NCBI GenBank assembly: GCA_002070105.1 | Contig: MWCQ01000015.1 | Span: forward strand, 1 to 55,460 | Direction: 5' to 3' | Origin: Firmicutes bacterium ADurb.Bin193 | GTDB lineage: Bacteria; Bacillota; Clostridia; Monoglobales; Firm-18 | Length of the DNA: 55,460 nucleotides | Part shown: in pieces, positions 23,145 to 55,460 of the stretch | Layout of the letters: each line of letters starts with the position of its first letter | Numbering within the stretch: the stretch's first letter is position 1 | Notes under the pieces: model-generated | What the model was told of the DNA's origin: nothing | Databases searched by the model: none | Seen by the model: the letters and a program-made list of their open reading frames with translations, nothing else | Position numbers and translations under genes: made by a program

Positions 23145-26048
23145 CTATCTTCTTATAATGTACATAAATCTTGGAACACCGTCTATTTTGAGAACCACAA
23201 TCTCATCAGCTTTAAACGGTTCCATTTCCTTGGTATCCTCATACGAATCAGCCTCGTCAAGACTACCTTCTGTTTCAAATCTGCTGCTTGCGGACTTTTC
23301 TGAATCATATACAAATACATTAACACTTGACGATACGGGAACCTCCTCGGTATCCGCACCCTCTATGGCTTCCTTGGTTTTATCTGTCGTAAGCGCTATC
23401 TGGGCGATATTATCCTCATAGCTCTTCAGGTATCCGTTAAACATGATGAAATGATCATTATCATTCGCATAATTGATGTCTACTTCTTCTATGTTTCCGC
23501 TTACATCAACAGTAATGTCAAGCTTGCCCTCGTTAACATAAATCTCCATTTTATACGGTTTCTTGTCTCCGTCATTGATATCCTTGGTCTCTTCGCTAAA
23601 CGAGGTAAACCTTATAACATCGCCTGCTCCAACATTCTTTGCATCTGCTTCTGTCGCCCATATAAGCACTTTAACATTGTATGACCCGCTCTTGAACATA
23701 TATGCTGTTATCTTCCTGTTGTAATCCGAGTTGTCAGGACTGTTGGCTGTGGATATGCTCTCAACAATAGCCGTAGGTGACCGCTCGTTAATATCGTCAT
23801 TAACCGCTCCGCCATACAGAACAACCGCCTTTGCAAGGTTTGTTGACCCGGTTGCGTCGTATGCTTCAACACAGTATTTGCTGTCACTATAGAATTTCGA
23901 GTATCCTGTAGTCCTTGAGTATTTTTCAAGCTGACTTCTGTCAGACGGTACAGTGAAAACTATAGTCTTTGAATCTATTATGAATTTCGATTGCTTGCCT
24001 TCCTCGGTCTTGCCCACAAACTGTCGGTTTGACGATTTGTAGGTAAGGGTCTTTTCGTCGCCGCTAACATTGTAGCCCAGTTCGGTCTGCTCAAGTTCAT
24101 CACCCGCAAGGGTATAGATATCGGTAACCTCTTTTGATGAATTTAAGCTGTATTTTATCAGCATTGACGGATAACAAGCGTTAATCTCATCATAGATAGA
24201 TGGGTCTACTCCGTCGTTATTTATGGTGTTGATGGAATTTACAATGTCTTTTATTTCACCCACAACATTCTCGGCTTTATAGGATGTTCCGTCTATTCTT
24301 ACCCTTGACGCCCCGTGGTACTTTGTGGCACCCGAACTTGTACCGGTCTGGGGAACGATATAGAATTCAAGACCGTTATTTTCAAGTCCGACAGACTCAT
24401 ACCCTACCGCAGCAAGGAATCCGTAAGAAGCTCCCGCCGATGCCGTCTTGTTAAATGCGGCAATCTTTCCGTCCTTGTCGAGATAGAAGGTTCCGCTGTC
24501 GTCAACTTTAAGCTCGGAGACTGCCCCGTTTCCGATTGCGTACTTCTTAAAATATTTTGAAAGCTTATACTCCTTGTTGTTTATTTCGATTGTATCCTCG
24601 TCCTCAACTGCCGTAATCGACCCGCTTACAGGATTGCTTGTTATTATTACCTCCATGGTATTCCTGCTTGAAGCATTAGTGCTCTTTATGGAAAGAACAT
24701 TCCATTGTGTGATATTGCTAAGTGTTGCTTCTGCTCCGCTTTGCTTTTTAATAGTGATATCCCACGAGGAATCGCTTGTGTCAATCGTTATCGAATTATC
24801 CTGTGATGTGGTGCGGTACTGGTCTATAACCTTTTTGGTTGATGTACTTACCGATTTTACGACATAGGTTTCATATTTGGTAACCATTATCCTGTCAAAC
24901 TTTCCGGTTCTCTCGGAGTCAATAAGCTCAAGCGAACCGGTAAGAGGCTGAAGGTCATCCACATCTGCCGAGCTGTCAATACGACCGTTTATGGAAATCA
25001 ACGGGTTTTTAGCAACCTCTACCGTTGTAGTGCTGTTTCCGTCTTCCCTCCAATACTTAATTTTAAGTCCGTTTTCTATGCTTCCCGTTATTTCTTCAAT
25101 ATCATCTGCATCAATAATCAGTATATCGGAGGATTTTGTCTTATCTTCAATATAGATTAGAGTCTTTAAACCTTCAACATCTTCGCTGTAATAGAATTTG
25201 ACGGAATGACCAACCATGCCGGCAGTGCTTATTCCGCCGTCTTTTAATGTAACATTCTCCTCTTCTGTGTTGTCATAGATAATAACTTCTCCCGCACGAG
25301 CCTTTGAAGATTTAATACTCTCGGCTGAGTTAGCTATAAGCTCACCGTTTCTTACCGTAATACCGAGGTTTTCGCTAAGCAGGGTTTTATCCGGCTTAAC
25401 TTCAAACCTCTCGCGGCCGCCTACAACAGACCTTACCATAAGGTCGACTTCAAGCGAATTATAAACAAGCCTTGCGACCTGCCACCTTTTTGCCGGAACG
25501 CCTTCCGTACCGGCAACACCCGAAACGATATTAAGCTGAACAGCCGCGGCAAGATAGCCGCTCGGCCATACTTTTGATGCGTCGTTTCCAACCTTGCTAA
25601 GAGCAAGCGATTCGTATCCGAGTGCGCAAACTACCATTTTTACAGCCTGTTCGTAAGTTACAAGCGCTTCAGGACCAAATGTGCCGTCGCCAAAGCCGTT
25701 AATTATTCCGAGCGATGACGCAACATTTATGTATCCTGAACCCCAATGATCATCAGCAACATCGGTAAACTGAGTTTTTCCCATCGAAGCTGTTGCGGAA
25801 GGTTCCTGTCCCAAAGCCCTTACGATAACCGCGGCAAATTCGGTACGGGTTATATCGCCGTCAGGCTTAAAGGTTCCGCCGTCATAACCCTTGAGCAGTT
25901 TTAACGCCGCAAGAAACGACACGGCAGTAGCGTATGATTTTGTTTCGTCCACATCGCTGAATGTCGCCGCCGAGCCGACAGTTACAAAACCGCCCACAAC
26001 AAGAGTTGCAGCTAATATAAGCGATAGCAATCTTGATTTTAGTTTCAT
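23145..26048 (-). CDS. Secreted S-layer homology (SLH) domain surface protein
   Basis: 967 aa. Signal peptide 1-28 (LLSLILAATLVVGGFVTVGS-A). Three SLH repeats: about 30-80 (FSDVDETKSYATAVSFL, KGYDGGTFKPDGDITRTEFA), 92-143 (FTDVADDHWGSGYINVA, GFGDGTFGPEALVTYEQA) and 155-200 (WPSGYLAAAVQLNIVSGV). They bind pyruvylated wall polymer. The remaining 760 residues are beta-rich, Ser/Thr/Asp-rich and unrecognised. AAGGAGG precedes ATG, with a promoter at 26107-26135. Size and promoter suggest an abundant S-layer or surface-array protein. Monocistronic. Confidence 0.9.
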   Translation of the reverse strand: MKLKSRLLSLILAATLVVGGFVTVGSAATFSDVDETKSYATAVSFLAALKLLKGYDGGTFKPDGDITRTEFAAVIVRALGQEPSATASMGKTQFTDVADDHWGSGYINVASSLGIINGFGDGTFGPEALVTYEQAVKMVVCALGYESLALSKVGNDASKVWPSGYLAAAVQLNIVSGVAGTEGVPAKRWQVARLVYNSLEVDLMVRSVVGGRERFEVKPDKTLLSENLGITVRNGELIANSAESIKSSKARAGEVIIYDNTEEENVTLKDGGISTAGMVGHSVKFYYSEDVEGLKTLIYIEDKTKSSDILIIDADDIEEITGSIENGLKIKYWREDGNSTTTVEVAKNPLISINGRIDSSADVDDLQPLTGSLELIDSERTGKFDRIMVTKYETYVVKSVSTSTKKVIDQYRTTSQDNSITIDTSDSSWDITIKKQSGAEATLSNITQWNVLSIKSTNASSRNTMEVIITSNPVSGSITAVEDEDTIEINNKEYKLSKYFKKYAIGNGAVSELKVDDSGTFYLDKDGKIAAFNKTASAGASYGFLAAVGYESVGLENNGLEFYIVPQTGTSSGATKYHGASRVRIDGTSYKAENVVGEIKDIVNSINTINNDGVDPSIYDEINACYPSMLIKYSLNSSKEVTDIYTLAGDELEQTELGYNVSGDEKTLTYKSSNRQFVGKTEEGKQSKFIIDSKTIVFTVPSDRSQLEKYSRTTGYSKFYSDSKYCVEAYDATGSTNLAKAVVLYGGAVNDDINERSPTAIVESISTANSPDNSDYNRKITAYMFKSGSYNVKVLIWATEADAKNVGAGDVIRFTSFSEETKDINDGDKKPYKMEIYVNEGKLDITVDVSGNIEEVDINYANDNDHFIMFNGYLKSYEDNIAQIALTTDKTKEAIEGADTEEVPVSSSVNVFVYDSEKSASSRFETEGSLDEADSYEDTKEMEPFKADEIVVLKIDGVPRFMYIIRR

Positions 26049-45727: not shown

Positions 45728-48052
45728 TTATGCGTTTCTGTAACTTCCGGGGGTTACGCCCTCGTACTTTTTGAATGTTCTGATAAAGGTATTGCTGTTG
45801 TAGTATCCGACTATCTGAGCAATTTCACCGATATTGTATTTTTCATGCTTTAACAGGTATTTCGCTTTAACAAGGCGCACCCTGTTAAGATAATCCAAAA
45901 GCCCCTCACCTATCTGAGTTTTGAAAACGCGGGAGATATAATCGGGGTGCATCGAAAACATTTCGGCAATTGTTGAAATATTAAGGTCTGCGTTTTCATA
46001 GTTTTCGTCAATAAATTTCTTTACCCTAAGCCCGATAGAATCCGGTCGGATTCCCTTCTCCTCAAGCATATAGTGGCACATCTGCCTTATAATTTTTTTG
46101 ATTGTCTCTTTCATGTCTATTATCGTACTGCATTTCAAAAACGATTCCACCGAATCCATCTGCTCAACCAAAATATTTTCACGGTGGCTGCCGATTTCGT
46201 CAAGCGTCTTAATAACCGTGCTCATAATATCGAACATGAGACATCTTGCAAGAGAAATTGAGAGGGAAGCCGATGAAGGTTTTTTGGAAAAATTCCTCTC
46301 GAAAATATCCTCCAAAACAAGCTCCGCATTCTCACAGTCCCCTGATTTTATATTCATAATAAGTGCCTGTTCTGTTTCAATCGGATAGTAATAATTCTGT
46401 TCGGCGGTAACGATTGTATTATACGGAATTACTATTCCGTTGCCCTTTATAAGCCTGTATTCCATTGCCTCAAACGCCTCGGAATAGGCTTTGGGTATTC
46501 CGCTGAAGGTCTTGTGAATATCGCTTACCGATGCCGTCAGCTTAATGTTGAAATTCTTATATACAAATTTTAAAGCTTCGTTCACCGTTCGGATTATGTC
46601 CTCAAGACTGTTTGTACTTTTGGTACCGAGATTTACAAGACAGGTCATCATTGATTCCGATTCAACCATAATTCCGACCATATCATTAAGCTCCAGCATT
46701 TCTTCAACGGCGTGGGTTATAACCAAATTCACCATTGCAAGCTCCTTTTGGTTTTTTCCGTCCCTCGCACGGTGAAAAATGTCGCCGCAGTCGTCTATGT
46801 GAAGGAGTACCACCGCGAAGCTGTCGGACTGAAACTTTATGTCAAGCGCCGCAAGCATGTCGTTAACGGATGAGTAGTTCCCCGCCCTTCCTTTTAAGAG
46901 CCTGCTTATAAAGCTTGATTTGAGCGCCTCGTTCTGATGACCGAGAACATTGCGTATTTTCTTCTTTTCATCTACCATTTCATGAACGGCCTTTGTTATG
47001 AGCTCGTATTCGTTCGCCCCTTTTTCGTTGTGCCCCTTCCCCTCAAAAACTTCCTCCATAATTTCCTTTACGGGCTTGTAATTTCGTTTGGCAAAGAACA
47101 CGGACAAGAATACACCCACAGCCAGCAACAAAAGCGCACCGATCCATAAAAGACCTTGCAAAGAGCCACTCTCAACACCGAAAGCGCTTTTCGGCGTTAT
47201 AACAAGGTAAGAAAGCTCCGCAACCTCTGACGGTATGTATGAAATCAATACGCTCTTGCCGAGCAGGGTTGTGCTTGTTACCCTGTAATTACCCTCAAGG
47301 ACCTTATGGGCGGTTCGTTCAGGCAACGCTGCCGGTAAGGTGGACACCAAAATGTTTTTGAATTTATCCAAAATTGTAACATTGCTGCCTTGTTTAGCTG
47401 TGATATCGGACAGTCTTTCCGAATCAAGCCGTGCGACAATCGCGCCGAGGACTTCGTTTCCGTCGGGAGCGGCAAGGGATTGTATGTATAAAAGCAAGCC
47501 CTCTTTTGCGCTTTCATCGGTATCGGTCGTTTTTCTGATATTAAGATAGGTTTTTGAATGTTCCCCTGTAAGAAGGCTGATCCATTGTCTGTAGGAAAGA
47601 TAATCTCCCATTTTTAAAGCGCTGTACATTGGTTCGCTTTGGGCATGGGAATCGGGTGACAAAACAAGATCGAGCGGCTTAAAATATATGTAAATGTCGC
47701 TTATTGCTTCGTTTTTTGAAATATCATTTTTTAATCGGTCCGAAAGTTGCGTGGCGGTATCGCCGATAGTCCCGGACATTTGTCCGCTTGATGCAAGCAT
47801 AAAAGAAACCCGACCGTCGGAAGCTATATCCGAAACAAGCCTTTGTGCATTCTTCAAATAGCTGTCAACAACAACCCCGACACGACCTGCCGCATTGTAG
47901 CCCGATTCTTCAGCCATATTGCTTATAATCGAGTGCGCGACAAAAAGGCTCATTCCCGCAAAAGAATTATAAATAAGCATAAAAATAATATATGAAAATA
48001 TCCATGATGCAAAAACAGTTTTTCTTTTGCTCCATAGTTTTTTAATGCCCAT
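45728..48052 (-). CDS. Membrane-bound AraC-family regulator with extracytoplasmic sensor
   Basis: 774 aa, ATG 48052. Two membrane segments (about 12-35 and 300-325) flank a roughly 260-residue outside sensor domain (helix-rich, double-Cache-like start GRVGVVVDSYLKNAQRLVSD). A cytoplasmic GGDEF-free middle region (about 370-620) follows, then a C-terminal AraC domain (about 670-774): NISTIAEMFSMHPDYISRVF, RVRLVKAKYLLKHEKYN, IGEIAQIVGYYNSNTFIRTF, YEGVTPGSYR. Typical of one-component sensors for extracellular sugars that activate glycan-use genes. It lies directly downstream of, and co-oriented with, the GH43-sulfatase genes, which it probably controls. Confidence 0.88.
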   Translation of the reverse strand: MGIKKLWSKRKTVFASWIFSYIIFMLIYNSFAGMSLFVAHSIISNMAEESGYNAAGRVGVVVDSYLKNAQRLVSDIASDGRVSFMLASSGQMSGTIGDTATQLSDRLKNDISKNEAISDIYIYFKPLDLVLSPDSHAQSEPMYSALKMGDYLSYRQWISLLTGEHSKTYLNIRKTTDTDESAKEGLLLYIQSLAAPDGNEVLGAIVARLDSERLSDITAKQGSNVTILDKFKNILVSTLPAALPERTAHKVLEGNYRVTSTTLLGKSVLISYIPSEVAELSYLVITPKSAFGVESGSLQGLLWIGALLLLAVGVFLSVFFAKRNYKPVKEIMEEVFEGKGHNEKGANEYELITKAVHEMVDEKKKIRNVLGHQNEALKSSFISRLLKGRAGNYSSVNDMLAALDIKFQSDSFAVVLLHIDDCGDIFHRARDGKNQKELAMVNLVITHAVEEMLELNDMVGIMVESESMMTCLVNLGTKSTNSLEDIIRTVNEALKFVYKNFNIKLTASVSDIHKTFSGIPKAYSEAFEAMEYRLIKGNGIVIPYNTIVTAEQNYYYPIETEQALIMNIKSGDCENAELVLEDIFERNFSKKPSSASLSISLARCLMFDIMSTVIKTLDEIGSHRENILVEQMDSVESFLKCSTIIDMKETIKKIIRQMCHYMLEEKGIRPDSIGLRVKKFIDENYENADLNISTIAEMFSMHPDYISRVFKTQIGEGLLDYLNRVRLVKAKYLLKHEKYNIGEIAQIVGYYNSNTFIRTFKKYEGVTPGSYRNA

Positions 48053-48196
48053 AACATCCACTCTCTTTTGTATGTATTTCAATGGATAAACCCGATTTAA
48101 TCATTTTATGAATAATGCCTTGATAACGGATTGCCGACACGGTACTAATTCTTTATTTGTAGGATTTTCGTGATATAAGTACAGAGTTTCAATATA

Positions 48197-48454: not shown

Positions 48455-49960
48455 TTATAGCAGTCCGCCGCAGGGTCCGTCATGAAGGTATATAAACCTG
48501 TTAAAATCCGCGCTTCCTCCGGAGCCGTTAAAGCTAAACAAACCAAGCCTTGCGCCCTTCCAAAATCCGTTTTGCAGAATAACGCCTTCTCCGAGCCGTA
48601 TATATTTCTCGCCGTCAAAGCTGTATGAGAAGTATGCGGGCTTTGGCACATTGATTTCCGCCCGCAGCCAGATTGTATCACCGCTTAATTTCGGCCCGCG
48701 AACGCTTACCCCCTCCGTAAGGCAGGATACCCAAAGGCCGTCATCGCACTTTTCAACGCCTATCCAATGCCCTTGTTTACCCGATATAAAGGCAAGCCCC
48801 GCAACCTGACCCAAAGCCATGTTTTCAACGCTTAGTTCTGTCGTTGCCACTCCCCTGTTTCCCATAATCTTTTGTGTAATGGTGTTTCGCGCAAGGAGCA
48901 AATCCTGTGCGGGTTTTGCCTTTATTCTGAAATAGCCCTTCCTTTCGGTAAGCGACCAGTCCGAATCAGCGGGATTGTGGTTCCACTGCCACCCAAGCCC
49001 CAAACTTTCCCCCTCAAACTCGTCGCTTGTCTGCGGTGCGGTTATGGGATGTTCGCCGTCTATCGCGGGCTTTTTATGTATCATCACGGGCTCATTGTTG
49101 ATTCCCATCATCGGCCAGTCATCCACCCACTCCACGGGCTGAAGATGACATACCCTTCCCAACGCTCCTACCGACTGAAAATGGTAGAACCATGTTTCAC
49201 CGTTTTCAAGCTCTATAAGCGCGCCCTGATGAGGCCCGTTAATTTCCGTGGAGCCCTGCTTCAGTACAACTTTTCGCTCATAGGGCCCGTAAATATTCCC
49301 GGAACGCAGCACTGTCTGATAGCCCTCGCTGACTCCGCCCTCAGGAATACTGAGGTAGTAATATCCGTTTCGCTTGTGAATTTTCGTTCCCTCCGCAACA
49401 GGGCCTTCATATATGGTAACACCGTCGTCCAAAAGCGTTGTTCCGTCGGGGCTCATTTTATGAAGGATAATGGGTCCCGCCCCAAGTACGCTGTGCCCGA
49501 GATATGCCGTCCCGTCATCGTCCCAGAAGGGACAGGGGTCTTCCCAGCGTGCTACCCGTTTTACCTCATGAAGAGGCGACCACGGCCCCGCAGGGTTTGT
49601 TGCCTTGGACATATAAAGCCCTTCCCTCGGAGTGCAGAAATAAACATAAAACTCTCCATTGTGGTATCTTATTGACGGCGCCCAGCTTCCCTTTCCGTAG
49701 CCGTCCATGTTATCATAGCGCTCATCTATATCCAGACGGTTGTAGACATGCGCAATAATCGTCCAGTTGACCAGATCCTTTGAGTGCAGAACAGGCATGC
49801 CCATATAGTGAAATTCGGAGCATACCATATAAAAATCTATTCCGACCCTGATTACATCAGGGTCGGAATAGTCGGCATTAAGTACGGGGTTTTTATAGCT
49901 TCCATTACCCATATCCCCCCATGCGCCGGGGGTACTGTTTGTTAAAGGGTTGTTTTCCAC
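48455..49960 (-). CDS. Glycoside hydrolase family 43 (beta-xylosidase/arabinofuranosidase type)
   Basis: 501 aa, GTG 49960 with AAGGAG 9 nt upstream. No signal peptide, so cytoplasmic. Five-bladed propeller (about 20-320): YKNPVLNADYSDPDVIRVG (general-base Asp33), LHSKDLVNWTII, GSWAPSIRYHNGEFYVYF, PCPFWDDDGTAYLGH, GPVAEGTKIHKRNGYYYL (acid Glu), INGPHQGALIELENG. The C-terminal 180 residues form the beta-sandwich usual on GH43 beta-xylosidases (FRIKAKPAQDLLLARNTI, AGLAFISGKQGHWIGVE). Cleaves xylose/arabinose oligomers after import. Operon with sulfatase. Confidence 0.88.
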   Translation of the reverse strand: MENNPLTNSTPGAWGDMGNGSYKNPVLNADYSDPDVIRVGIDFYMVCSEFHYMGMPVLHSKDLVNWTIIAHVYNRLDIDERYDNMDGYGKGSWAPSIRYHNGEFYVYFCTPREGLYMSKATNPAGPWSPLHEVKRVARWEDPCPFWDDDGTAYLGHSVLGAGPIILHKMSPDGTTLLDDGVTIYEGPVAEGTKIHKRNGYYYLSIPEGGVSEGYQTVLRSGNIYGPYERKVVLKQGSTEINGPHQGALIELENGETWFYHFQSVGALGRVCHLQPVEWVDDWPMMGINNEPVMIHKKPAIDGEHPITAPQTSDEFEGESLGLGWQWNHNPADSDWSLTERKGYFRIKAKPAQDLLLARNTITQKIMGNRGVATTELSVENMALGQVAGLAFISGKQGHWIGVEKCDDGLWVSCLTEGVSVRGPKLSGDTIWLRAEINVPKPAYFSYSFDGEKYIRLGEGVILQNGFWKGARLGLFSFNGSGGSADFNRFIYLHDGPCGGLL

Positions 49961-49988: not shown

Positions 49989-51440
49989 TTATTTTAGTCC
50001 TAGTCTTTCAAACTGTTCCGAAGGGCAATCATTTTCCTTCATCAGCTTAATCATAAGCTCTGTCATTCGACGCTCAACCTTCGAATCGGTAATGGGGTTT
50101 TGCTGACCGGGGTCACTATCAAGGTCGAAAAGAAGGGTTGGGTAGGAATGGTTTTCTTTCTTATCCCGCCCTGCTATCTTCATTACCTTGCACCCCTTCG
50201 TAAAGGAAAACGGGCCTGCAACCTCAATATCCTGAAGCTCGGATATGCTAAACATATTTCTCATATGAGTAGGCATAAGCGTATACTCATAAAGCGGAGT
50301 GTTGTCGTCAGACTTTGGCGCACGCATATAAACATACCTTCCGTCAGTGCAGTTTACATGCCCGCCGTGTATTCCGAAAAGCGCACCGTCGCGAATCTTT
50401 CGGTCGCACTCAATAACCTCTTTAAGCGGTTTACCTTGCATATCCTTGGGAATATCGACATTGAAAAAGTCCAAAAGTGTGGGCGCAATATCAATCGTCT
50501 GAACAAGCGCATTCCTGCGCTCTGCCTTTATGCCGGTTCGGGGGTCCCATACAAAAAGCGGCGTATGGGCGATTTCCTCATAAAACGGCATACGGCATTT
50601 TGCCCACCAGTCATGCTCACCGAGAAGGAACCCGTGGTCGGTGTTGACAATAAGCATCGTGTCCTTCCACATATCATGCTTGTCCATCATATCGAGCACC
50701 TTGCCGAGATTGTGGTCACACATGCTGATAAGCGCAGCATTTTCATACCTTACATGCTCTATGTAAGGACGCTCTTCCTCACTTACGGGACTATACCGAG
50801 GCCAGTCAAAAGGCGGTCCTTTATAATCATGGGGGTAAAGGTCTTTGTAATGCTGTTGTGTAAAGAAGGGTTCATGCGGGTCAAAGGTTTCGATCTGTAT
50901 GAACCAATTATCGCAGTCAACATTTTTTTCGATAAACTCAAGCCCAAGACTAAAGGTAACGCTTTGAGGCTGATCCTCTTCTTTTTGCATATACTTTCTG
51001 TTTATCGCGTCCTGCCTCAGGCGCTGACCGAGGTGCTCCACAGGCTCAGGGTCGGCAACCTCACCCTTCCAGCGGTCACCCTCCTGCCCCCTGACAATTT
51101 CCCACGAGTTGTAGCGGTGGTGATAGGTACATCCGCCGTCCTCCCAATAATGTTGATGGTCGCTTACCAAATGTGTGTAGATTTTGTTTTTTCGCAATAT
51201 CTGTGGCATCGAGTCGTCAAAAGGCTCCAAAGGCCCCCAGCTTCGATGCAAAAAGTTATACCTTCCCGTATGAAGCTCCCGCCGTGCGGGCATGCATGGC
51301 ATACTTCCCACATAGCATTTGTCAAATACTACGGTCTTTTCCGCCAATCTCTTGAAATTCGGCGCCTTAACCCAGTCACACCCGTAGGGCGGAAGCATAT
51401 GTCGGTTAAGAGAATCATACATAACCATAATTGCACGCAT
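49989..51440 (-). CDS. Arylsulfatase-family sulfatase, Cys-type
   Basis: 483 aa, ATG 51440, GGAG upstream. Formylglycine site Cys49 in CMPARRELHTGR (C-x-P-x-R), so it needs a maturating enzyme; no anSME gene is in the window. Metal ligands: Asp9 (MYDSLN), TDHGFLLGEHDWWAKCR, VQTIDIAPTLLDFFNVDIP. No signal peptide is visible, so it would act inside the cell on sulfated sugar fragments. 28 bp before the GH43 gene. Confidence 0.88.
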   Translation of the reverse strand: MRAIMVMYDSLNRHMLPPYGCDWVKAPNFKRLAEKTVVFDKCYVGSMPCMPARRELHTGRYNFLHRSWGPLEPFDDSMPQILRKNKIYTHLVSDHQHYWEDGGCTYHHRYNSWEIVRGQEGDRWKGEVADPEPVEHLGQRLRQDAINRKYMQKEEDQPQSVTFSLGLEFIEKNVDCDNWFIQIETFDPHEPFFTQQHYKDLYPHDYKGPPFDWPRYSPVSEEERPYIEHVRYENAALISMCDHNLGKVLDMMDKHDMWKDTMLIVNTDHGFLLGEHDWWAKCRMPFYEEIAHTPLFVWDPRTGIKAERRNALVQTIDIAPTLLDFFNVDIPKDMQGKPLKEVIECDRKIRDGALFGIHGGHVNCTDGRYVYMRAPKSDDNTPLYEYTLMPTHMRNMFSISELQDIEVAGPFSFTKGCKVMKIAGRDKKENHSYPTLLFDLDSDPGQQNPITDSKVERRMTELMIKLMKENDCPSEQFERLGLK

Positions 51441-51492: not shown

Positions 51493-52455
51493 CTATCTCC
51501 ACGGCAAAACGATTCCCTTTATATAATCTTTCGGCTTATTCTCAAGCATCCGGAATCCCTCGTTTATTTCATCAAGCGAAAACTCATGCGTAATCATACC
51601 GTCTATCTTAAACGAACCCTTTTCAAGCAGGGAAACAGCGCGTCTTAAGTCCTCCATTTGATTGAGCGAATGACCGGGGTGAGGAACACGCAGGTCAATC
51701 GACCTTTCAACGGCGGGGCGGAAATCAAATTCCTTGGTAGCCGTTTCATGCGAGCTCATAAGAAGAAGCCTGCCTCTGCCCGTAGGCTTCAGATAGTATA
51801 TGCACTGGTTTAAAACACCGGGATTTCCTGTGCCTTCTATAACAAAGTCACCCATGTGTCCGCCCGTTATGTCCGAAATAGCCTGTATTGCATCACAGTT
51901 TTTCGGGTTTACCGTATGGGTCGCGCCAAACTTCTTTGCCAACGCAAGCTTTGAATCATCAATATCAACAGCTATAAGACAGGACAGCGTATTCCCCGAA
52001 AGCGCTTGTGTGCACCACAACCCCATAGGACCGCAGCCCACTACTATTCCGCAATCGCCAGGTTCGGCAGCCGCAGCCTTCAATACAGTTACAATGTCTT
52101 TTAAGGGTTCACCCAAAACCTTATGTATGTCAAACTCTTCACTTATCTTTATACATCTGTCTTCGCTTGCCGCGGCGTATTGAGAAAACCCTTCGAGTTT
52201 CCCCGGCAAATAGCAAATCTTATCGCCTACCTTAAAATTTGTCACCCGTGAGCCAACCTCAACAATCTCTCCTGCCCACTCATGCCCTAATGTCTGGGGG
52301 CATGTTCCGAGGTAACCGAACCAATGGTTAAGCTCCCAATTACACAGGCCGCATACCGCTACCTTTACCAGTACCTCATCCTGATTATAGCTGACCTCCT
52401 CTTCCCTTATCTCAAATTTACCCGGCTTAACAAGATATGCACGCTTACCTTTCAA
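51493..52455 (-). CDS. Medium-chain zinc-binding dehydrogenase
   Basis: 320 aa from TTG 52455 (GGGAG 8 nt upstream; GTG 52464 is too close to that site). Catalytic zinc ligands Cys35 (CGLCNWE), His58/Glu59 (GHEWAGEIVEVGSRV); Rossmann segment VVGCGPMGLWCTQAL, AVDIDDSKLALAKKFGATH. The structural-zinc four-cysteine lobe is absent. Sugar or polyol oxidation is plausible given the GH43-sulfatase neighbours; substrate unknown. First gene of the glycan operon. Confidence 0.8.
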   Translation of the reverse strand: MKGKRAYLVKPGKFEIREEEVSYNQDEVLVKVAVCGLCNWELNHWFGYLGTCPQTLGHEWAGEIVEVGSRVTNFKVGDKICYLPGKLEGFSQYAAASEDRCIKISEEFDIHKVLGEPLKDIVTVLKAAAAEPGDCGIVVGCGPMGLWCTQALSGNTLSCLIAVDIDDSKLALAKKFGATHTVNPKNCDAIQAISDITGGHMGDFVIEGTGNPGVLNQCIYYLKPTGRGRLLLMSSHETATKEFDFRPAVERSIDLRVPHPGHSLNQMEDLRRAVSLLEKGSFKIDGMITHEFSLDEINEGFRMLENKPKDYIKGIVLPWR

Positions 52456-52493
52456 TTGTAACACTCCCTATTATAAAATATGATTTATATACT

Positions 52494-52522: not shown

Positions 52523-52552
52523 CATAAAGGGGTAAAATTTTGCCCCTTTATG
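52523..52552 (-). terminator. Terminator after stalk-discoidin protein 1
   Basis: CATAAAGGGG (52523-52532) pairs with CCCCTTTATG (52543-52552); inner AAAA/TTTT can extend it. The - strand continues TTGCTTTTTTT. Confidence 0.85.
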
Positions 52553-52572: not shown

Positions 52573-53529
52573 TTATCTAAGCCCGATTTCAACCTCATGG
52601 ATAGTCAGCCAGGCATTTTTTGTATTCCCCTTGTTTATAATCCTGATATAGCGGACGGTCTGCGCCGAAAAGCCGTACAACTCCATATCATCGTTTGTTC
52701 CGCTGCTTGACAGGTCCGCTATGGTGGTGAAATCCGTTCCGTTTACAGAGCCTTGAATCTCAAAACTCTGTACTCGTACAGCTCCGTTACCCCATCCGAT
52801 TGCTACGCAGTCAACCTTCTTTTCGCTTCCAAGGTCAAAGGTAACATAAATACCTATATTTTGTTGAGTATAATAAGTTTCCTTGTTTTTGTCAATCATT
52901 TCTTCGGGTACTGCTCCTTTATGTCCCTCTACACTTGCCGTTGCTTCCACTATAGTGTATTTTTCCTTCATAACCGTATTCGCAGGAAGAATACCTGCTT
53001 CGACGGCAGGAACGGTTGTTGCCGTCGGTGTGGGTGTCGGTGTAGGTGTCGGCGTCGGTGTAGGTGTAGGTGTGGGCGTAGGTGTTGGTGTGGGCTTTTG
53101 GGTCGTTATTACAACCGTGCTTGTTGCCTCTACCCACTGCACATCAGCGCCGAGCGACTCCGAAACAAACCTTAGCGGTACCATTGTCCTGTCCTGATAC
53201 AGCATTGCGGGTGCGTCCAATACCTTGGTAACACCGTTTACCGTCGCATTAACGCTTCCGATCTGAAGGACTATTTTTGTACTGCCTTTCATAGCCGTTA
53301 CAGTTTCGGTAGCTTCCTCCCACGATACGGCTGCGCCCATTATCTCGAAAATAAAACGCATAGGTACCATTGTACGGTCATTTACAAGGATGGGCGCCGG
53401 GTCAAAGGTGTACGATGTGCCGTCAATCACGACCTTAATCGGATCATCCGCAAAGACCGTGCCGAAAGACAGCAACATTGAGCCAACCATAAAGATGCCG
53501 AACAGTTTTGAAAGAACCTTTTTCTTCAT
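52573..53529 (-). CDS. Secreted stalk (copper-amine-oxidase-N) + discoidin-like protein 1
   Basis: 318 aa. Signal peptide 1-28 (LFGIFMVGSMLLSFGTVFA). Copper-amine-oxidase N-terminal-type domain 30-142: PILVNDRTMVPMRFIFEIMG, SWEEATETVTAMKGS, LYQDRTMVPLRFVSESLGAD. Twelve Pro-Thr repeats (about 148-171) as a flexible spacer. The C-terminal 130 residues resemble an F5/8 type C (discoidin) carbohydrate-binding domain: VTFDLGSEKKVDCVAIGWG, FEIQGSVNGTDFTTI, QTVRYIRIINKGNTKNAW, IHEVEIGLR. No catalytic domain: probable surface or secreted glycan-binding protein. Confidence 0.85.
   Translation of the reverse strand: MKKKVLSKLFGIFMVGSMLLSFGTVFADDPIKVVIDGTSYTFDPAPILVNDRTMVPMRFIFEIMGAAVSWEEATETVTAMKGSTKIVLQIGSVNATVNGVTKVLDAPAMLYQDRTMVPLRFVSESLGADVQWVEATSTVVITTQKPTPTPTPTPTPTPTPTPTPTPTPTATTVPAVEAGILPANTVMKEKYTIVEATASVEGHKGAVPEEMIDKNKETYYTQQNIGIYVTFDLGSEKKVDCVAIGWGNGAVRVQSFEIQGSVNGTDFTTIADLSSSGTNDDMELYGFSAQTVRYIRIINKGNTKNAWLTIHEVEIGLR
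53023..53094. repeat. Hexanucleotide repeat encoding (Pro-Thr)12
   Basis: Twelve CCN-ACN dicodons, 72 bp, in paralog 1; third positions vary, so it is an old repeat kept by selection rather than a recent slippage array. Confidence 0.9.
53063..53385. repeat. 323-bp perfect duplicate of 54153-54475
   Basis: Base-for-base identical to 54153-54475 (offset 1090), spanning the end of the Pro-Thr linker and most of the stalk domain. The first differences appear at 53386 and 53392. Discoidin parts of the same genes differ widely. Recent gene conversion or duplication. Confidence 0.95.
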
Positions 53530-53595
53530 AATTTTTCACCTCTCATAATTTTTTATTATATTTGAATTACATCATTTATTGTCAATAATAAAGAA

Positions 53596-53627
53596 GTTCC
53601 TAAAGGGAAGGCTTTCCCTTTAGGAAC
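53596..53627 (-). terminator. Terminator after stalk-discoidin protein 2
   Basis: GTTCCTAAAGGGAA (53596-53609) pairs with TTCCCTTTAGGAAC (53614-53627), perfect 14-bp stem with a 4-nt loop, followed on the - strand by TTCTTTATTATT. Confidence 0.88.
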
Positions 53628-53644
53628 AAAATTTGTTCTAATAT

Positions 53645-54619
53645 TTATCTATGCCCTACTTCAATCTCATGGATATTCATAAAGGTATTCTTTGTATTTC
53701 CTTTGTTTGTAATCCTGATATAGCGGATGCTTTGTTCGGGTATTGCGTAATACTCCAAATCACTGCCTCCCGCTGTCGCTCCGGTACTCTCAAAGCTTGT
53801 TGCAATCGGGGTAAAGTCCGTTCCGTTTACCGAAACTTCAAGATCAAAGGTGTATTTTCTCTCATTGCTGCTTGCCCATGCTATTGCTATACAGTCAACC
53901 TTCTTTTCACTTCCGAGGTCTATTGTTGCAGTTACGCCAAGATTTTTGTTTGACCAGTTTGTTGTTAAATCTCCGTCAAACAAATTTTCTGCGGGAAGAC
54001 CGTTGTTGCCGGGCTCGCTTGTGTCAATATTAGCGATAGTAAATTTCTCTTTCAAAGCAGTACCCGCAGGAAGAATACTTATTCCTCCGGCAGGAGCGGT
54101 TGTTGCCGTCGGTGTGGGTGTCGGAGTTGGTGTGGGTGTGGGTGTCGGTGTGGGTGTAGGTGTGGGCGTAGGTGTTGGTGTGGGCTTTTGGGTCGTTATT
54201 ACAACCGTGCTTGTTGCCTCTACCCACTGCACATCAGCGCCGAGCGACTCCGAAACAAACCTTAGCGGTACCATTGTCCTGTCCTGATACAGCATTGCGG
54301 GTGCGTCCAATACCTTGGTAACACCGTTTACCGTCGCATTAACGCTTCCGATCTGAAGGACTATTTTTGTACTGCCTTTCATAGCCGTTACAGTTTCGGT
54401 AGCTTCCTCCCACGATACGGCTGCGCCCATTATCTCGAAAATAAAACGCATAGGTACCATTGTACGGTCATTTACGAGGATAGGCGCCGGGTCAAAGGTG
54501 TACGATGTGCCGTCAATCACAACCTTGATTGCATCCTCAGCAAAAGCTGTGCCGAAAGACAGCAGCATTGAGCTAACCATAAGAATGCAAAGCAGTTTTG
54601 AAAAAGCTTTTTTCTTCAT
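53645..54619 (-). CDS. Secreted stalk + discoidin-like protein 2
   Basis: 324 aa. Same layout as the protein at 52573: signal peptide, stalk domain 30-142 almost identical, (Pro-Thr)13, then a discoidin-like domain that is only moderately similar (ATIDLGSEKKVDCIAIAWAS, FDLEVSVNGTDFTPIATSF, YIRITNKGNTKNTFM, IHEIEVGHR). The binding face therefore likely differs while the stalk is kept. Own ribosome site and terminator, so separately transcribed. Confidence 0.85.
   Translation of the reverse strand: MKKKAFSKLLCILMVSSMLLSFGTAFAEDAIKVVIDGTSYTFDPAPILVNDRTMVPMRFIFEIMGAAVSWEEATETVTAMKGSTKIVLQIGSVNATVNGVTKVLDAPAMLYQDRTMVPLRFVSESLGADVQWVEATSTVVITTQKPTPTPTPTPTPTPTPTPTPTPTPTPTATTAPAGGISILPAGTALKEKFTIANIDTSEPGNNGLPAENLFDGDLTTNWSNKNLGVTATIDLGSEKKVDCIAIAWASSNERKYTFDLEVSVNGTDFTPIATSFESTGATAGGSDLEYYAIPEQSIRYIRITNKGNTKNTFMNIHEIEVGHR
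54107..54184. repeat. Hexanucleotide repeat encoding (Pro-Thr)13
   Basis: Thirteen CCN-ACN dicodons, 78 bp; one unit more than the copy at 53023. Unit order matches the other copy near the stalk-domain side. Confidence 0.9.
54153..54475. repeat. 323-bp perfect duplicate of 53063-53385
   Basis: Second member of the duplicated segment described at 53063-53385. Confidence 0.95.
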
Positions 54620-54783
54620 AGTTTTTGACCTCCAATATGTATTTTTTTATATTATACAAACAGAAAATAACTCTTCCATTTATAAATAATATACCCAAAT
54701 CATGCCGCTTAATGTCAATGGTAAAACGGTGAGCTTAGGAAGAAAGATTTTCACCCTTTAGAAATAAGACTTGTTTTATGTAT

Positions 54784-55460
54784 TTATCTGAGTCCTATTT
54801 CAGCCTCGAATATGTTTATCCACGCGCCTGCTGAGTTGCCCTTATTTATAATTCTGATATAGCGGACGGTCTGCGCCGGAAAGCCGTACAGCTCTTTTTC
54901 GGTGGTCGTTCCGCTGCTTGTAAGGCTTACTATGGGGGTGAAGTCTTTTCCGTTTACAGAGCCCTGCAGTTCAAAGTTCTGCGTCCGTTCGTTTCCCTTG
55001 CCCCATGCGATTGCAATGCAATCAACCTTCTTTTCGCTTCCGAGATCAAATGTAACAAAAATATCGAGGTTTTGCTGAGTCCAGTTTGTTTCCATATTGC
55101 CGTCAATCATATTTTCGGGGACGGTTGCATTATGTCCTTTTACGCTTGCCGTCGCCGCTGTTATGGTATACTTCTCCTTCATTTTAGCGTCCGCCGGAAG
55201 AATACCTGTACCGCCGGCAGAAGCGATAACGGGTTTAGGTTCATCTTTCTTGGTTGTTATTACAACCATGTTGTTTGCTTCTACCCATTGTACATCCGCG
55301 CCGAGCGACTCGGAAATGAACCGAAGAGGTACCATTGTCCTGTCCTGATACAGCATTGCGGGCGCATCCAATACCTTTGTAGCACCGTTTACCGTTGCCT
55401 CTGTGCTTCCGATTTTAAGAACTATTGTTGTATCGCCCTTAACAGCCGTTACCGTTTCGG
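54784..55460 (-). CDS. Secreted stalk + discoidin-like protein 3 (5' end outside window)
   Basis: Frame open to the window edge; 225 codons visible. Stalk-domain end TVNGATKVLDAPAMLYQDRT, MVPLRFISESLGADVQWVE, then a short linker EPKPVIASAGG in place of the Pro-Thr repeat, then a discoidin-like domain (VTFDLGSEKKVDCIAIAWGK, FELQGSVNGKDFTPIV, YIRIINKGNSAGAWINIF). Third tandem paralog, more diverged; it did not take part in the recent exchange seen in the other two. Confidence 0.82.
   Translation of the reverse strand, partial: ETVTAVKGDTTIVLKIGSTEATVNGATKVLDAPAMLYQDRTMVPLRFISESLGADVQWVEANNMVVITTKKDEPKPVIASAGGTGILPADAKMKEKYTITAATASVKGHNATVPENMIDGNMETNWTQQNLDIFVTFDLGSEKKVDCIAIAWGKGNERTQNFELQGSVNGKDFTPIVSLTSSGTTTEKELYGFPAQTVRYIRIINKGNSAGAWINIFEAEIGLR

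What the first reader, a model, noticed from the sequence alone, without database searches (positions are those of the whole stretch)
52573..55460. Tandem stalk-discoidin family with identical stalks and diverging binding domains
Paralogs 1 and 2 share 323 identical bases covering stalk and linker, while their discoidin domains differ throughout. This is the pattern of gene conversion that homogenises the anchor part and leaves the binding part free to vary. Paralog 3 has another linker and did not take part. The arrangement could be a cassette system for diversifying surface glycan binders.
Basis: partly seen in the sequence, partly recalled or inferred. Interest (0 to 1): 0.6.

Follow-up and report, generated by a model that had tools for sequence, protein, structure and literature searches.

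The report
Recombined modular sugar-binding secreted proteins
Two neighbouring genes for secreted, probably sugar-binding proteins share an exactly identical middle stretch because DNA was copied between repeated modules, which this bacterium does in many of its modular secreted proteins and in any domain, so it is ordinary recombination rather than a dedicated diversification system.

Summary
P1 (52573-53529, -) and P2 (53645-54619, -) share an exact 323-base tract (53063-53385 = 54153-54475) covering most of the Cu_amine_oxidN1 'stalk' domain (PF07833) and part of a (Thr-Pro)n linker. Their signal peptides (dS 0.51) and CBM32-like F5/8C domains (dS 1.29) are old and diverged. The two parts have different trees: the stalk groups P1 with P2, the F5/8C domain groups P1 with P3, and each data set rejects the other's grouping. 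Recombination/gene conversion is well supported.

Paralog 3 is a contig-end fragment, most likely the C-terminus of a 1085-aa Sortilin/BNR-like protein whose first 864 codons end contig C20. The genome holds about 50 stalk domains, many fused to sulfatases or BNR-like proteins. Identical tracts (131-394 bp) also hit a C-terminal cap, a 3' flank and a catalytic part, so homogenisation is not specific to an anchor. F5/8C pairs show dN/dS of about 0.2-0.4. I found no silent cassette array, no recombinase nearby, no surface anchor. A single-contig relative also has long identical tracts. Best reading: ordinary ectopic recombination and module shuffling among polysaccharide-degradation proteins.

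The parts
52573..53529 (-). P1: 318-aa secreted protein: signal peptide (53446-53529), Cu_amine_oxidN1 domain (53107-53430), Thr-Pro linker (~52999-53100), F5/8 type C / CBM32-like domain (52591-52944)
53645..54619 (-). P2: 324-aa secreted protein, same layout: signal peptide (54536-54619), Cu_amine_oxidN1 (54197-54520), linker (~54083-54190), F5/8 type C (53663-54028)
54784..55460 (-). P3: fragment cut by the contig end; second part of Cu_amine_oxidN1 (55258-55455), short non-repetitive linker, F5/8 type C (54805-55155). Most likely the C-terminal 224 aa of a 1085-aa Sortilin/BNR-like protein that continues on contig C20
53063..53385 (-). P1 copy of the 323-bp identical tract (stalk codons 49-144 plus first linker codons)
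54153..54475 (-). P2 copy of the 323-bp identical tract
53596..53627 (-). 14-bp-stem hairpin between P2 and P1 (intrinsic-terminator-like, T-rich tail): P2 and P1 are probably separate transcripts
   Evidence: -22.1 kcal/mol, z -5.7
52523..52552 (-). hairpin after P1 (terminator-like)
   Evidence: -18.4 kcal/mol for the region, z -4.5
51493..52464 (-). neighbour: zinc-type alcohol dehydrogenase family
49989..51440 (-). neighbour: sulfatase
48455..49960 (-). neighbour: GH43 (arabinofuranosidase/xylosidase family) with GH43_C2
45728..48082 (-). neighbour: AraC-type transcriptional regulator

Best explanation
P1 and P2 are secreted two-module accessory proteins: a signal peptide, a Cu_amine_oxidN1 (PF07833) module, a flexible Thr-Pro linker and a CBM32-like F5/8C domain that probably binds a glycan. 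They sit at the end of a sulfatase/GH43 polysaccharide-use locus (glycan binding is inferred). The same stalk-linker-cap set is attached to sulfatases and BNR/Sortilin-like proteins elsewhere in the genome (shown). Because dozens of stalk copies are similar at the DNA level, ordinary RecA-type homologous recombination copies blocks between them. One recent event copied at least 323 bp between P1 and P2, from within the stalk into the repetitive linker; a P1-like donor is slightly favoured. Other events copied C-terminal caps or catalytic segments. The outcome is domain shuffling plus patchy homogenisation with no dedicated machinery. Tract identity and mosaicism are shown; the recombination mechanism and the lack of selection for variability are inferred.
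For: Tract bounded on both sides: P1/P2 differences 15/84 in the signal peptide against 6/348 in the stalk, Fisher p 1.4e-7; F5/8C dS 1.29; permutation p <= 5e-5. Tree conflict: the stalk data reject P1+P3 (p-AU 8e-53), the F5/8C data reject P1+P2 (p-AU 1e-8). Genome-wide exact tracts in any domain: 394, 353, 323, 309, 255, 131 bp. About 50 PF07833 hits in a 2.63-Mb genome, some attached to sulfatases and Sortilin/BNR proteins. Relative G018, assembled as a single contig, has exact tracts of 428-1289 bp in regions around its own PF07833 genes. CBM32 structures are the nearest fold and sequence matches for the F5/8C domain. In the 5' flank of the tract P1 is closer to its stalk sister C3:100147 (58/60) than P2 is (52/60).
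Against: No second strain or raw reads were available, so neither the event nor its direction can be observed, and exactness of the identity could be raised slightly by consensus merging in a draft assembly. The F5/8C grouping of P1 with P3 has modest support (73/87), although the alternative is rejected. The signal-peptide comparison rests on 28 codons. Whether G018's long tracts are conversion or recent duplication was not examined gene by gene.
Confidence: 0.8

Rival explanations
1. Selected cassette/diversification system: recombination keeps a constant anchor and shuffles or diversifies F5/8C binding domains on the cell surface.
For: P1/P2 have a constant stalk and different binders; P2's binder resembles those of C2:55282 and the C3 remnant, P1's resembles P3's; linkers are repetitive and could serve as crossover sites.
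Against: Reverse polarity at other loci (constant cap, diverged stalk). dN/dS about 0.2-0.4 in F5/8C. No silent cassettes beyond one out-of-frame deletion remnant. No recombinase among annotated neighbours. No surface anchor motif in P1/P2.
Confidence: 0.07
2. Recent tandem duplication of one gene followed by replacement of the F5/8C domain in one copy from another locus, rather than conversion of the stalk.
For: Also gives an identical stalk with different binders; mosaic binders exist in this genome.
Against: The signal peptide and the intergenic upstream sequence should then be near-identical too, but the signal peptide has 18% nt difference (dS 0.51) and the 60 bp upstream show no evident similarity by eye.
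Confidence: 0.08
3. Assembly artefact: the identity or adjacency comes from collapsed or misjoined repeats in a draft genome.
For: Draft of 58 contigs; contigs C15 and C20 do break inside this repeat family.
Against: Two copies on one contig with unique sequence on both sides allow only one linear order (A-R-B-R-C), so a misjoin cannot easily create it; diverged flanks on both sides; similar long tracts in a single-contig relative.
Confidence: 0.05

Closest known systems
Gene conversion between paralogous surface-protein genes (Helicobacter pylori homA/homB, PMC2795765; mycobacterial PE_PGRS pair, PMC1762029)
   Same: Paralogs in one genome share recombined segments while other segments stay diverged.
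   Different: Here the proteins are secreted accessory modules of polysaccharide degradation; no strain variation is known; homogenised segments fall in any domain. These papers were found by search and seen as abstracts only; the detailed comparison is from general knowledge.
Modular clostridial carbohydrate-active enzymes with CBM32 modules (e.g. C. perfringens CpGH89, PMC3313936)
   Same: Mobile CBM32-like F5/8C modules attached to catalytic domains; CpGH89 CBM32s are among the structural matches.
   Different: Here a PF07833 module and a Thr-Pro linker accompany the CBM, and stand-alone stalk-CBM proteins exist.
Cu_amine_oxidN1 (PF07833) secreted proteins of Gram-positive bacteria (Desulfotomaculum reducens surfaceome, PMC4137172; Paenibacillus lautus PaSOD-1, PDB 8IMD, PMC10432803)
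   Same: Same Pfam domain without an amine oxidase catalytic domain, fused to unrelated partners.
   Different: In PaSOD-1 the domain is a homodimerisation module; here the domain is the longer 108-aa form with two similar halves, and its role was not tested.

Membership tests
Cu_amine_oxidN1 (PF07833) domain proteins | Match above Pfam gathering cut-off | tested here: met
   131.8, 135.5 and 76.0 bits against a cut-off of 24.2
CBM32 / F5/8 type C (PF00754) | Pfam match above cut-off and CBM32-like fold | tested here: met
   60-69 bits against 28.2; Foldseek best hits are alginate-lyase CBM32s 5zu6 and 7d29, on a model that is confident only in the F5/8C part
CBM32 / F5/8 type C (PF00754) | Binds a carbohydrate | not testable with these tools
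   Needs binding assays or a glycan array
Gene conversion between paralogs | Near-identical tract bounded by diverged flanks on both sides, with conflicting phylogenies | tested here: met
Gene conversion between paralogs | Non-reciprocal transfer seen across strains | not testable with these tools
   No other genome of the genus among those searched and no close relative in two genome-contig scans
Diversity-generating cassette system | Silent donor copies or an array of partial genes | tested here: not met
   15 F5/8C hits, nearly all in long open frames; one partial out-of-frame remnant
Diversity-generating cassette system | Excess nonsynonymous change in the variable domain | tested here: not met
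   dN 0.38 / dS 1.29 for P1-P2, 0.20 / 1.11 for P1-P3, 0.21 / 0.59 for P2-C2:55282; dS is near saturation, so this is a rough guide
Diversity-generating cassette system | Dedicated recombinase or reverse transcriptase nearby | tested here: not met
   None among the larger genes given to Pfam at 23-55 kb; smaller genes were not scanned
Cell-surface anchored adhesin | SLH, LPXTG, lipobox or transmembrane anchor | tested here: not met
   Only a signal peptide is visible in P1/P2; no SLH domain by Pfam; no LPXTG or lipobox by reading the sequence

The most novel reading that the evidence does not exclude
The Cu_amine_oxidN1 module could be a shared association domain through which stand-alone binders (P1, P2) pair with sulfatases and BNR-like enzymes that carry the same module, a simple exchangeable complex, and recombination keeps these interfaces compatible. 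PaSOD-1 shows that a member of this domain family can dimerise (PMC10432803).
Probability: 0.07. Interest if true: 0.6.

Novelty: new member of a known kind. Interest (0 to 1): 0.25.

Why it matters
It shows how a bacterium with dozens of copies of one secreted-protein module mixes and homogenises it by ordinary recombination, so identical 'stalks' should not be read as evidence of a purpose-built diversification system. It also warns that draft contigs break inside such modules and can make enzyme fragments look like stand-alone paralogs. The role of the very abundant PF07833 module remains open, and this genome offers natural fusions for testing it.

Tried and rejected
Two scans of genome contigs, with P2 and with the three-protein alignment, found no relative outside this genome. 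Sixty relatives gave no full-length orthologue, only stalk-domain matches of about 38-55% identity, so a test by conserved arrangement was impossible. The AlphaFold model from three sequences was poor for the stalk (mean pLDDT 53), so no structural claim is made for it. Literature search found no paper on gene conversion in PF07833 + F5/8C proteins. P3 as a third stand-alone tandem paralog was rejected: its contig end and the end of C20 are the only two stalk domains cut by contig ends, are complementary, overlap by 11 bp in frame, and together match 130 bp of C2:55282 exactly; the joined frame is 1085 aa without a stop and 61% identical to that protein over its full length. This join is strong inference, not proof.

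Full report
OBSERVATION. The window is an entire contig (C15, 55,460 bp) of a 58-contig, 2.63-Mb draft genome. On the minus strand lie P1 (52573-53529), P2 (53645-54619) and a fragment P3 (54784-55460) cut by the contig end. P1 and P2 have a Thr-Pro linker; P3 has a short different one. The 323-bp exact identity is confirmed: 53063-53385 = 54153-54475. It covers codons 49-144 and about 11 linker codons.

IS IT MORE THAN CHANCE OR CONSTRAINT? Yes. P1/P2 dS is 0.51 in the signal peptide, 0.06 in the stalk, 0.25 in the linker and 1.29 in the F5/8C domain. Inside the tract there are no synonymous differences over more than 100 codons. A permutation of polymorphic sites gives p <= 5e-5, and the signal-peptide/stalk contrast gives Fisher p 1.4e-7. 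Both flanks are diverged, which favours conversion (or a double crossover) over a simple recent duplication. Trees conflict: stalk data put P1 with P2 (100/99) and reject P1+P3; F5/8C data put P1 with P3 (73/87) and P2 with C2:55282 and a C3 remnant, and reject P1+P2 (p-AU 1e-8). In the 5' flank of the tract P1 is closer to C3:100147 (58/60) than P2 is (52/60), a weak sign that P2 was the recipient.

WHAT SURROUNDS IT. In the direction of the plus coordinates the locus reads AraC-type regulator, GH43, sulfatase, alcohol-dehydrogenase-like protein, P1, P2, P3, all on the minus strand. Hairpins with terminator character follow P2 and P1, so these are probably separate transcripts. The genome has 50 PF07833 matches and 15 F5/8C matches. 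The stalk module is attached to sulfatases (C20:27702 with linker and cap; C2:53292 with the stalk only) and to ~1,100-aa Sortilin-Vps10/BNR-like proteins (C2:55282, C3:94908).

PARALOG 3. Contig C20 ends inside the stalk of an 864-codon Sortilin/BNR-like frame, and C15 ends inside the stalk of P3. These are the only stalk domains cut by contig ends. The ends overlap by 11 bp in frame; the joined sequence matches C2:55282 exactly over 130 bp across the break, which explains why the assembler stopped there; the joined frame is 1085 aa without a stop and 61% identical to C2:55282 over its full length. P3 is therefore most likely the end of an enzyme-like protein and not a third stand-alone binder. 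The join is inferred and needs reads.

IS IT A SYSTEM THAT PROTECTS THE ANCHOR AND FREES THE BINDER? The evidence is against it. C3:100147, C3:94908 and the C20 sulfatase share a C-terminal cap of about 140 aa that is 99% identical in DNA (exact tracts 394, 353 and 309 bp, the 353-bp one running past the stop codon into the 3' flank) behind stalks with dS 0.38-0.60. C27 and C4 proteins share 255 bp exactly in the catalytic part; C3:93858 and C3:94908 share 131 bp in the stalk. So any domain can be homogenised. F5/8C pairs show dN/dS of about 0.2-0.4, roughly estimated because dS is near saturation. C3:101237-101970 looks like a deletion remnant that joins the start of a BNR-like gene, out of frame, to a linker and F5/8C domain, which fits error-prone recombination among repeats. 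A relative assembled as one contig (G018) also has exact tracts of 428-1289 bp in regions around its PF07833 genes, so such tracts are not peculiar to a draft assembly.

FUNCTION. The F5/8C domain is CBM32-like; best matches are CBM32s of alginate lyases and a pectin-binding CBM32. Glycan binding is likely but untested, and the target is unknown. The stalk is not an established anchor: P1/P2 show a signal peptide but no SLH, LPXTG or lipobox. In PaSOD-1 (PDB 8IMD) a PF07833-type domain is a dimerisation module (PMC10432803); in D. reducens PF07833 proteins are described as often associated with cell-wall hydrolases (PMC4137172). A profile of this genome's stalks matches E. coli amine oxidase domain 1 (E 9e-8) and weakly 8IMD (E 0.01).

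VERDICT. The pattern is real and best explained by ordinary ectopic recombination and module shuffling in a large family of secreted polysaccharide-degradation proteins. It is a new example of a known kind. The most novel reading not excluded is that the stalk is an exchangeable association module.

Noticed in passing
L010:10148-10567 (C3:100147-100566), C3:94908-95327, C20:29592-30011: A 140-aa C-terminal cap domain with no Pfam match follows the stalk and linker in a BNR-like protein, a sulfatase and a stand-alone protein; 5 of 100 genomes searched, the window's own included, carry a match, in long frames; weak similarity to the C-terminus of a GH2 beta-galactosidase (6hpd, E 0.012).
   Followed up: partly
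C3:101237-101970 (L010:11238-11970): Apparent deletion remnant: the start of a Sortilin/BNR-like gene fused out of frame to a linker and F5/8C domain.
   Followed up: partly
C2:70470-78567 (L035): Tandem array of five ~500-540-aa PF07833 proteins, another expanded branch of the family.
   Followed up: no
window 55460 and C20:44880: Two contigs of the draft break inside the same repeat family and probably belong next to each other.
   Followed up: yes
window 23145-26048 (-): 967-aa protein with S-layer homology domains, a likely surface-anchored protein in the same window.
   Followed up: no
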